DNA from: Atopobiaceae bacterium
GTDB lineage: Bacteria; Actinomycetota; Coriobacteriia; Coriobacteriales; Atopobiaceae
DNA length: 64,000 nt
Direction: 5' to 3'
NCBI GenBank assembly: GCA_022482785.1
Contig: JAKVON010000002.1
Location: 124,001-188,000 of the forward strand
A model generated the notes under the pieces. The model was not told the origin of the DNA, did no database searches, and was given only the letters and a program-made list of their open reading frames with translations. Positions 50,588 to 53,882 of the stretch are shown here, one piece after another. A program made the position numbers and the translations under genes. Every line of letters begins with the position of its first letter. The stretch's first letter is position 1.

Positions 50588-52096
50588 ATGGCGAAGAAAA
50601 GCAGTACGAAGGCCCTTGGCTTCGAGGAACAGATTTGGGATGCGGCATGCAAGCTACGCGGGAACATTGACGCGTCCGAGTACAAGAACGTCGTCCTAGG
50701 GCTCATCTTTCTCAAGTACATCTCCGACAGCTTCGACCTCAAGCACGATGAGCTCGTCCGTGACGGTGAGGGGTTCGAGGAGGAGCGCGACGCCTATGCG
50801 GAGAGCAATACGTTCTGGGTCCCGAAGGGAGCCCGCTGGGACAGGGTGGCGAAGGCGGCGCACACCCCGGAGGTCGGTAAGGTGATCGATGAGGCCATGA
50901 GGCTCATCGAGCAGGAGAATAAGAGGCTCAAGGGCGTCTTGCCGAAGAACTTCGCCCGCCCGGAGCTCGACAAACGGCGTCTAGGTGACGTCGTCGACCT
51001 CTTCACCAACGTGAAGATGGCCGAGCAGGGGAATACCCACGACCTCTTGGGTGGAACCTACGAATACTGCCTCGCCCAGTTTGCCTCGCAGGAGGGTAAG
51101 AACGCCGGCGAGTTCTACACCCCGAGGTGCGTGGTTCAGACGCTCGTGAGCGTCATAGAGCCGTTTAAGGGCCGCGTCTACGATCCGTGCTGCGGCAGTG
51201 GTGGCATGTTCGTCCAGTCTGCCGAATTCGTAAAGGCGCACAGGGGCAAGATTAGCGACATCGCGATTTACGGTCAGGAGTCGAATCCCACGACCTGGAA
51301 GATGGCGACGATGAACCTTGCCATCAGGGGCATCGACGCAGACCTGGGCGCCTCAAACGCCGACACCTTCTTTAACGATTTGCACAAGACGAAACGGTTC
51401 GACTTCATCCTTGCGAACCCGCCCTTCAACCTCTCCGACTGGGGAGGCGATAAGCTCAAGGATGATCCGCGTTGGGAGTACGGCATCCCGCCCGAGGGCA
51501 ACGCAAACTTCGCCTGGATGCAGCACATGATTCATCATCTATCACAACGTGGCAGGATAGGCATGGTGCTCGCGAACGGATCGCTCTCGTCCCAGACGAA
51601 CGGCGAGGGGAACATCAGGAAGAACATCGTGGATGCCGACCTCGTCGAGGGTATCGTGGCCATGCCGACGCAGCTCTTCTTCTCCACTCAGATACCCGTA
51701 TGCCTCTGGTTTATCAACAAGGATAAGAAGCAGCACGGCAAGGTGCTCTTCGTCGACGCACGCGGGCTCGGAACGATGGTCTCCAGGTCGCAGAAGACCC
51801 TAAGGTCAGAGGAAGACATCGCGAGAATCTCCGGCACTTTTGACGCCTTTAGGAATGGGACCCTCGAGGACGAGAAGGGCTTCTGCGCCGCGGTCACCAC
51901 CGAGGACATCGCGAAGCAGGGATACGTCCTGACCCCCGGGCGATACGTGGGGATAGCGGACCAAGAAGAGGATGACGAGCCCTTCGAAGAGAAGATGAAG
52001 AGGCTGACCTCCGAGCTCAGTAAGTCGTTCGAGGAGTCTAACCGCCTCCAGGAAGAGATTCGCAAGAACCTGGAGGCGATTGGCTTTGGGGTCTAA
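50588..52096 (+). CDS. hsdM: Type I restriction-modification N6-adenine methyltransferase, M subunit
   Basis: VLGLIFLKYISD, GEFYTPRCVVQTLV, DPCCGSGGMFVQSAEF, NPPFNLSDWGGD. Confidence 0.96.
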   Translation: MAKKSSTKALGFEEQIWDAACKLRGNIDASEYKNVVLGLIFLKYISDSFDLKHDELVRDGEGFEEERDAYAESNTFWVPKGARWDRVAKAAHTPEVGKVIDEAMRLIEQENKRLKGVLPKNFARPELDKRRLGDVVDLFTNVKMAEQGNTHDLLGGTYEYCLAQFASQEGKNAGEFYTPRCVVQTLVSVIEPFKGRVYDPCCGSGGMFVQSAEFVKAHRGKISDIAIYGQESNPTTWKMATMNLAIRGIDADLGASNADTFFNDLHKTKRFDFILANPPFNLSDWGGDKLKDDPRWEYGIPPEGNANFAWMQHMIHHLSQRGRIGMVLANGSLSSQTNGEGNIRKNIVDADLVEGIVAMPTQLFFSTQIPVCLWFINKDKKQHGKVLFVDARGLGTMVSRSQKTLRSEEDIARISGTFDAFRNGTLEDEKGFCAAVTTEDIAKQGYVLTPGRYVGIADQEEDDEPFEEKMKRLTSELSKSFEESNRLQEEIRKNLEAIGFGV

Positions 52097-52658
52097 CGTT
52101 CCAGTAGGAGAGCTTATCGAATATTCAATCGGCGGAGGTTGGGGCAATGAGGACAGGACCCCATCCTCTGATACCTCTGTTTGTGTAGTTCGAGGTGCCG
52201 ACTTCCCTTCCTTTTCCCTGCCGAAGAGGGCGCTTCCAACTCGGTGGGAGACCAGCAAACGTGCCCAGAAGCGATATCTCAAACCAGGCGACATCGTTTT
52301 GGAGAATTCGGGGGGCACAAAAGATCGACCAACAGGAAGGACGATTTTCGTAACTGGACAAAACTGTCTAGATAACCTCATTCCCGCAAGCTTCTGTCGA
52401 TTGGTTCGTCCAAACCAGGCTCTCGTTGTTCCTCGATATCTTTATTATTGGCTGCAAGAAATGTATCTAGCGGGTAGAACGTGGAAATATCAGAACCAAT
52501 CAACTGGAATTGCAAACTTTCAATTCGACCTCTTCGCAAAGAATGAATACGTTCGCCTCCCCGCATATGACGAGCAGATAGCCATTGCAAAAGTACTTGG
52601 TGATATCGATGATCTTCAGACTAACCTTGCTTTTCTAAATGATTATTTGGCTGCTTAG
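52080..52658 (+). CDS. hsdS: Type I RM specificity subunit, first half (single TRD), ends at inversion repeat
   Basis: KPGDIVLENSGGTKDRPTGRTIFV..., YDEQIAIAKVLGDIDDLQTNLAFLNDYLAA*. Confidence 0.85.
   Translation: MALGSNVPVGELIEYSIGGGWGNEDRTPSSDTSVCVVRGADFPSFSLPKRALPTRWETSKRAQKRYLKPGDIVLENSGGTKDRPTGRTIFVTGQNCLDNLIPASFCRLVRPNQALVVPRYLYYWLQEMYLAGRTWKYQNQSTGIANFQFDLFAKNEYVRLPAYDEQIAIAKVLGDIDDLQTNLAFLNDYLAA
52637..52649 (+). repeat. Left arm of putative hsdS inversion repeat
   Basis: AAATGATTATTTG encoding NDYL; reverse complement at 53865-53877. Confidence 0.8.
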
Positions 52659-52664
52659 CATGAG

Positions 52665-53168
52665 CTAGCGCCGACGGCTGTTTGTCTCATGCTTGTTCGG
52701 GTTAACCTTCAAAGTTGCTTCAATGGCGTTTGCGCATGCTTTAGTCAAAGGATCGCCTATTGCAGCTTTGTAATCAAACCCTAACAATTGCATCGCTTTC
52801 AACGTATCTACCGATATTAATGACTTAAAATTCTCAAAACTTGATACGTCTGTATCTGGTGCAAATCCCTTGAGAATGTCCAACGCTTCACTAATGGTGT
52901 TCTGCAGATGGACAATATCCTCATCAGTGATTTGGAATCGTTTGAGTTCGGATTCGTATGCCTGAGCAACCGCAATTGCCTGAGCCCTTTCAGCTACTAA
53001 CTCATTGATTAGCTCTTCGTAAGAGTTGCAGACCTCGTCGAGCTTCTTCTTGTCTCGGATTGCCTGATATTTATTACTAACAGCAACTGCGGTCCCCTTG
53101 GCTGCCATAACCGCAAGCTGGGTCCCCATCGTAGCAAGCGCATTTTCGGTACTGTCCACCATTTCCAC
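52665..53168 (-). CDS. Hypothetical protein within the putative invertible segment
   Basis: 167-aa ORF with likely coiled coil (KKKLDEVCNSYEELINELVAERAQAIAVAQAYESELKRF). Confidence 0.6.
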   Translation of the reverse strand: MEMVDSTENALATMGTQLAVMAAKGTAVAVSNKYQAIRDKKKLDEVCNSYEELINELVAERAQAIAVAQAYESELKRFQITDEDIVHLQNTISEALDILKGFAPDTDVSSFENFKSLISVDTLKAMQLLGFDYKAAIGDPLTKACANAIEATLKVNPNKHETNSRRR

Positions 53169-53207
53169 CTCGAACGAATTTTAAAGAATAGCCTTATCGA
53201 CATTCCT

Positions 53208-53882
53208 CTATTGGATAGAACAGTTGATCCGTGACACGTCAATATCTCCAGACATCAACCTTGGAAGAAGAGCATCTCGTAGCATCTCAAGATTACATCT
53301 CGCTTTCTCGTTAATCCTAATCAGTTCCAATATTGGTCCCGCAAGCTGCGAAAAGCTTTTGCAAGCATGTTCTTCGGGGATATAGGCAGGATAATCTTTC
53401 ATAATCCGTCCCGACACTTCAATAAATGTTGTACCAGACCCAGTATTCTCAATTGCAGCTGCGTTCTCCTTTAGAAAGCAGAAAACATATGCCGTGCCAA
53501 TGTTATCGTGCGGAACAACTGATTTGAAACCTTGATTAGTGCAGAGACTCTCCGCTGCTATAGCGACATATCCCACAGGAGCCCGAGAACTAAACAGTAC
53601 GGAACCCTTTGGCATGAGTGTTGCGCTGCATGAACAATAGCCCTTATCTGTAATGTCTGTGGCTCCGTGTGAAATGAAGATGCTTGAGGTTTTTGCCAGG
53701 TCCCTTGGAGTGATCCATCCAATACCGTTGGCGGTGAAATTGTCTCTGAGCTTCTTTGAAGGCGTGGCGCCCGCCACAACGTTGCCCAAATCGCCAATAG
53801 TCCCATTGGGGAAATTCATATCGCAATAAAATCTCTGACGAAACAAGCCGAGTAAGATATCGAGCAAATAATCATTTGTCAT
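53208..53882 (-). CDS. hsdS: Type I RM specificity subunit, second half (TRD2 + C-terminus), inverted
   Basis: NDYLLDILLGLFRQRFYCDMNFPNGTIGDLGNVVAGATPSKKLRDNF..GIGWITPRDLAKT...LRDALLPRLMSGDIDVS. Confidence 0.85.
   Translation of the reverse strand: MTNDYLLDILLGLFRQRFYCDMNFPNGTIGDLGNVVAGATPSKKLRDNFTANGIGWITPRDLAKTSSIFISHGATDITDKGYCSCSATLMPKGSVLFSSRAPVGYVAIAAESLCTNQGFKSVVPHDNIGTAYVFCFLKENAAAIENTGSGTTFIEVSGRIMKDYPAYIPEEHACKSFSQLAGPILELIRINEKARCNLEMLRDALLPRLMSGDIDVSRINCSIQ
53865..53877 (-). repeat. Right arm of putative hsdS inversion repeat
   Basis: CAAATAATCATTT on the + strand, exact reverse complement of 52637-52649. Confidence 0.8.

What the first reader, a model, noticed from the sequence alone, without database searches (positions are those of the whole stretch)
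52080..53882. Invertible hsdS: two head-to-head TRD halves joined by a 13-bp inverted repeat at the in-frame fusion point
The + strand hsdS half ends ...LQTNLAFLNDYLAA*. The - strand ORF opens with NDYLLDILLGLFRQRF...TRD2...LLPRLMSGDIDVS. Both encode NDYL with the identical 13-mer AAATGATTATTTG (52637-52649 on +; 53865-53877 on -) in the same codon phase. Inverting the ~1.2 kb between the arms would create one ORF, ...AFLNDYL|LDILLGLFRQRF..., with two TRDs and the expected central conserved region. The assembled orientation therefore looks like the single-TRD state of a phase-variable type I RM system. Switching would change methylation specificity and the epigenome.
Basis: partly seen in the sequence, partly recalled or inferred. 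Interest (0 to 1): 0.86.

Follow-up and report, generated by a model that had tools for sequence, protein, structure and literature searches.

The report
Split, invertible type I specificity gene
A DNA-modification system in an uncultured gut-type actinobacterium carries its target-recognition gene split into two halves by an apparent DNA flip at a 13-base site; related bacteria flip the same site with a dedicated enzyme, but that enzyme is not found in this genome, so whether it still flips is open.

Summary
An hsdR-hsdM operon (47471-52096) runs into a plus-strand hsdS half ending LNDYLAA* (52080-52658). It faces a minus-strand half starting MTNDYLLDILL (53208-53882). The only two exact copies of AAATGATTATTTG in the 2.61-Mb genome lie in inverted orientation and the same codon phase at the join. 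In-silico inversion gives one 408-aa HsdS that aligns without gaps across the join to full-length relatives (50-55% identity).

The decisive support is comparative. HsdM-linked loci in other Coriobacteriales carry several hsdS halves in both orientations, the same site and usually a dedicated tyrosine recombinase. Where the site differs, every copy in that locus differs alike. This is the known class of inverting type I RM loci (pneumococcal cod/PsrA type), in a reduced form.

Two caveats. No close relative of that recombinase was found in the window or the rest of the assembly (85.5% complete), whereas 49 of 399 genomes of the order have one. No protein matching the fused state was found. Present-day switching is therefore unproven; the locus may be locked.

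The parts
47471..50581 (+). hsdR, type I restriction subunit (1036 aa)
   Evidence: Pfam HSDR_N, SWI2_SNF2, T1RH-like_C
50588..52096 (+). hsdM, type I methyltransferase subunit (502 aa)
   Evidence: Pfam N6_Mtase, HsdM_N; 90% identical in G036, 69-76% in other genomes of the family
52080..52658 (+). hsdS N-terminal half: TRD1 plus conserved helix, ends ...FLNDYLAA*
   Evidence: PADLOC Specificity_I 3e-61 covering profile positions 2-177 of 405; NDYLAA* ending shared by many related loci
52637..52649 (+). left recombination site AAATGATTATTTG (codes NDYL)
52665..53168 (-). passenger gene inside the segment, 167 aa, unknown function, family recurrently next to RM genes
   Evidence: 108 homologues; no Pfam, PADLOC or NCBIfam family; contexts
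53208..53882 (-). hsdS C-terminal half: MTNDYL..., TRD2, C-terminal conserved region
   Evidence: Pfam Methylase_S 2.9e-15; aligns to residues 233-423 of PDB 1yf2 S subunit, 2e-42
53865..53877 (-). right recombination site AAATGATTATTTG, inverted, same codon phase

Best explanation
This is a reduced member of the recombinase-driven invertible hsdS loci of Coriobacteriales. A tyrosine recombinase acting at AAATGATTATTTG in the central conserved helix once flipped a 1.24-kb segment. That separated TRD2, the C-terminal conserved region and a passenger gene from TRD1. In the flipped-back state, hsdR-hsdM would be followed by a complete 408-aa HsdS and then, 39 bp downstream on the same strand, the passenger gene. 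In the assembled state only a one-TRD HsdS is in the operon; it would either be inactive or pair with itself to give a different specificity. Shown: anatomy, site, homology, open fused frame. Inferred: that inversion made the present arrangement, and its effect on methylation. Unknown: whether a recombinase is still available; none was found, so the locus may be locked or depend on one encoded elsewhere.
For: Two exact inverted copies of the 13-mer, genome-unique and in the same codon phase. The fused ORF is open, 408 aa, and aligns end to end at 50-55% with full-length HsdS proteins carrying the same TRD pair, without a gap at the join. HsdM-linked relatives have hsdS halves in both orientations, with copies of the same core ending NDYLAA* or continuing NDYL-(A/E)EL, and a recombinase whose members are 51-63% identical to that of L044. 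Site copies vary in concert within a locus: AAATGATAATTT in L047, AAATGGCTATTT in L056 and L057. The nearest relative (G036, HsdM 90%) has four such sites, the recombinase and an hsdS half 61% identical to this one. The hsdS segment is 43-46% GC against 57-60% in hsdRM and 60-67% in flanks, as expected of an exchanged module.
Against: No recombinase at the locus; the best assembly matches are 28-32% identical and presumably XerC/XerD. No fused-state protein near 100% identity found, while this split half is in several contigs. Only two halves remain, so there is no repertoire to shuffle.
Confidence: 0.87

Rival explanations
1. Locked relic: an inversion split hsdS, the recombinase was then lost, and the system is fixed in a one-TRD or inactive state.
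For: No cis recombinase or remnant; none close in the assembly; no fused-state protein found. In pneumococcus the 15-bp IR1 inversion needs PsrA (PMC4948785).
Against: Both sites are still exact and all reading frames are open; assembly is 85.5% complete, so a trans recombinase could be missing.
Confidence: 0.5
2. Still switching: a recombinase elsewhere in the genome (missing from the assembly, or an unrelated integrase or XerC/D) flips the segment, toggling between one-TRD and two-TRD HsdS.
For: Exact sites, intact ORFs, eight tyrosine recombinase matches and one serine recombinase in the assembly; 49 of 399 genomes of the order carry the cognate family.
Against: No cognate enzyme found; the cognate is normally encoded inside the locus; no alternate orientation seen.
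Confidence: 0.37
3. The present two-polypeptide arrangement is itself functional: the halves are both made and assemble, or the N-terminal half pairs with itself, giving a stable specificity.
For: The right half has its own ATG; full-length and truncated HsdS of NgoAV have differing specificities (described in PMC7394358).
Against: No convincing promoter before the right half (no excess over shuffles).
Confidence: 0.3
4. Chance: two unrelated hsdS genes whose shared NDYL peptide happens to use the same codons.
For: Identical codons by chance has about 3-9% probability.
Against: The halves are complementary (N and C) and match the two parts of single relatives; the same site recurs across genera with concerted variants.
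Confidence: 0.02

Closest known systems
Pneumococcal cod / SpnIII (Spn556II) inverting type I RM locus with PsrA (PMC4948785, PMC7096588)
   Same: Type I RM locus; very short inverted repeat (15-bp IR1) inside hsdS swaps the 3' TRD; half-gene partners in inverse orientation
   Different: Here the recombinase gene is absent, only one complementary half exists, and a passenger gene lies inside the segment; relation to PsrA not tested by sequence
Invertible hsdS loci of other Coriobacteriales (L044, L047-L050, L056, L057, L076)
   Same: Homologous hsdRM, same or variant site, same NDYLAA* half endings
   Different: They have 3-6 sites, extra hsdS halves and a tyrosine recombinase at the locus
REBASE inverting type I systems with duplicated hsdS (PMC7394358)
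   Same: hsdS inversion by inverted repeats; some loci reported with extra genes of unknown function
   Different: Those have duplicated hsdS genes and often a recombinase; this has a single split pair

Membership tests
Type I restriction-modification system | hsdR, hsdM and hsdS subunit genes together | tested here: met
Inverting (phase-variable) type I hsdS locus | hsdS sequences in opposite orientation sharing in-frame inverted repeats | tested here: met
Inverting (phase-variable) type I hsdS locus | inversion yields an intact hsdS matching known full-length proteins | tested here: met
Inverting (phase-variable) type I hsdS locus | dedicated recombinase at the locus (usual, not universal, so not counted as defining) | tested here: not met
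Inverting (phase-variable) type I hsdS locus | both orientations observed in the population | not testable with these tools
   no reads; one genome per species; no fused-state protein
Coriobacteriales NDYL-site hsdS group (defined here) | AAATGATTATTT-type core coding NDYL in all hsdS halves of the locus | tested here: met
PsrA-type switch | PsrA homologue acting on the site | tested here: inconclusive
   no cognate recombinase found in the assembly; PsrA sequence itself not compared

The most novel reading that the evidence does not exclude
The inverting module carries its own accessory RM gene. The 167-aa family is found with type I, type ISP and methyltransferase-helicase systems and a C5 methyltransferase, and is placed so that flipping hsdS into its complete form also puts it downstream in the hsdRMS operon. 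Inversion would then couple specificity to production of an unknown RM helper, for example one that tempers or aids restriction.
Probability: 0.2. Interest if true: 0.65.

Novelty: new member of a known kind. Interest (0 to 1): 0.42.

Why it matters
It extends inverting type I RM loci to a broad set of Coriobacteriales (32 of 123 sampled genera carry the recombinase family) with a simple sequence signature. My literature search found no paper on type I inversion in this group. It also points to an unnamed small protein family that recurs beside RM genes. If the locus switches, one genome would carry two methylation states; if not, it shows how such switches decay.

Tried and rejected
Viral-contig searches with the passenger gene and the C-half: no relatives; phage records: none for the passenger gene. 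Other hsdS-like genes of the genome (C13, C17) are separate; the C13 one is not an NDYL half. The third near-match of the 13-mer (C2:259059, L016) showed no sign of hsdS in the sequence read (not translated). Serine recombinase: one 528-aa gene on another contig, not pursued. AlphaFold model of the passenger protein was poor (pLDDT 66, all helical), so no fold search was made. A profile match of it to invasin IpaB (E 0.0017) is weak and taken as helical resemblance only. Promoter and terminator scans gave no excess over shuffles. Several recombinase loci showed no NDYL-type site within 1.5 kb; two of those use related cores (TAAACGATGATTTA, AAACGATTATTTA), the rest were not resolved.

Full report
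Observation. The window belongs to a draft Coriobacteriales genome of 2.61 Mb in 33 contigs, 85.5% complete. A type I operon runs hsdR (47471-50581), hsdM (50588-52096), then a plus-strand hsdS half overlapping the hsdM end (52080-52658) that stops at ...AFLNDYLAA*. A minus-strand half lies at 53208-53882 and begins MTNDYLLDILL. The first matches the N-terminal part of specificity subunits (positions 2-177 of a 405-position profile). The second matches the C-terminal part (residues 233-423 of the solved S subunit 1yf2). The two copies of AAATGATTATTTG are exact, inverted, in the same codon phase, and the only exact copies in the genome.

Is it more than chance? A 13-bp or longer inverted pair in 2 kb is a 2.45% event in Markov sequence. 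If both proteins must read NDYL, identical codons have a 3-9% probability. The repeat alone would thus be suggestive only. Inverting the segment in silico gives an uninterrupted 408-residue ORF. It aligns over 96-100% of its length at 50-55% identity with at least a dozen full-length HsdS proteins, with no gap at the join. These share both TRDs with the window, so the two halves are best read as one ancestral gene split by inversion.

Comparative evidence. I took the DNA around 15 HsdM relatives of the same family. Many loci carry additional hsdS halves, some inverted, with a 321-342 aa tyrosine recombinase (L044, L047-L050, L056, L057; L050's ORF reads longer), and so does one from another family of the order (L076). 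Inverted halves end NDYLAA* and complete genes read NDYL-AEL or similar at the same place. The same core as in the window is present in L044, L045, L048-L050 and L055. In L047 all four sites are AAATGATAATTT; in L056 and L057 all are AAATGGCTATTT. Such concerted variation within a locus is what recombination between the sites produces and what protein constraint alone does not predict. The C-terminal tails ...PNNHL...NYHL and ...NSHL of several HsdS proteins are these same sites read on the other strand (direct reading). A scan of 399 genomes of the order found this recombinase family in 49 genomes of 32 genera.

What is missing. No recombinase of this family is in the window, and the own genome scored none in the order-wide search. 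Its best matches, 28% and 32% identical, are presumably the housekeeping XerC/XerD. In pneumococcus the comparable 15-bp IR1 inversion depends on PsrA (PMC4948785; PMC7096588). No protein representing the fused state at near-identity was found, whereas this half is present in several contigs as the split form. So the arrangement is a product of inversion, but current switching is unproven. I rate locked against still switchable at roughly 0.5 to 0.37. The rival confidences are not exclusive: the two-polypeptide reading could hold under either.

The third gene. Between the halves lies a 167-aa gene (52665-53168, minus) with 108 database relatives and no Pfam, PADLOC or NCBIfam family. In L076 the same module order occurs: site, passenger gene, one more ORF, an IS element, hsdS half, inverted site (the IS is my reading of its two ORFs). 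L072 shows NDYL-hsdS half, ORF, passenger gene. Elsewhere it sits beside hsdMS plus xerA on an Enterococcus faecium plasmid, beside a C5 methyltransferase on a 4.7-kb Staphylococcus plasmid, directly after type ISP or similar-sized helicase genes on lactic-acid-bacterial plasmids (with an IS between), and between a helicase/DUF4391 pair and an N6/N4 methyltransferase in L080. Other neighbourhoods show no RM gene nearby. The association is therefore frequent but not universal, and I did not test it statistically. After inversion this gene would lie 39 bp downstream of the complete hsdS on the operon strand, hence the coupling idea in the section on the most novel reading.

Verdict. Known kind of system, new member, reduced form.

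Noticed in passing
window 52665-53168 (-): Unnamed 167-aa helical protein family with C-terminal motif DTLKAMQLLGFDYKxAIGDPLTE, repeatedly beside type I, type ISP and methyltransferase genes; no family model
   Followed up: partly
window 43832-47133: McrB-like AAA protein and McrC next to the type I operon: a small defence island
   Followed up: no
window 55075-55226: A 25-27 bp sequence present three times, once inverted (27 nt, 93% arms), just right of the locus
   Followed up: no
L045 (G043) 1641-6263: hsdR and hsdM each split into two ORFs by frame or stop changes in a relative with an NDYL-site pair and no nearby cognate recombinase: another decaying locus
   Followed up: partly
L046 (G090) 8252-9571: Relative with a complete hsdS sharing TRD1 with the window and an inverted NDYLAA* site overlapping its 3' end, no recombinase seen within the fetched 16 kb
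   Followed up: partly
L076, L072, L078: A second small ORF (about 164-230 aa, VIVPGLLYDL...DCDYIISSNCNAGVY) travels with the passenger gene
   Followed up: no
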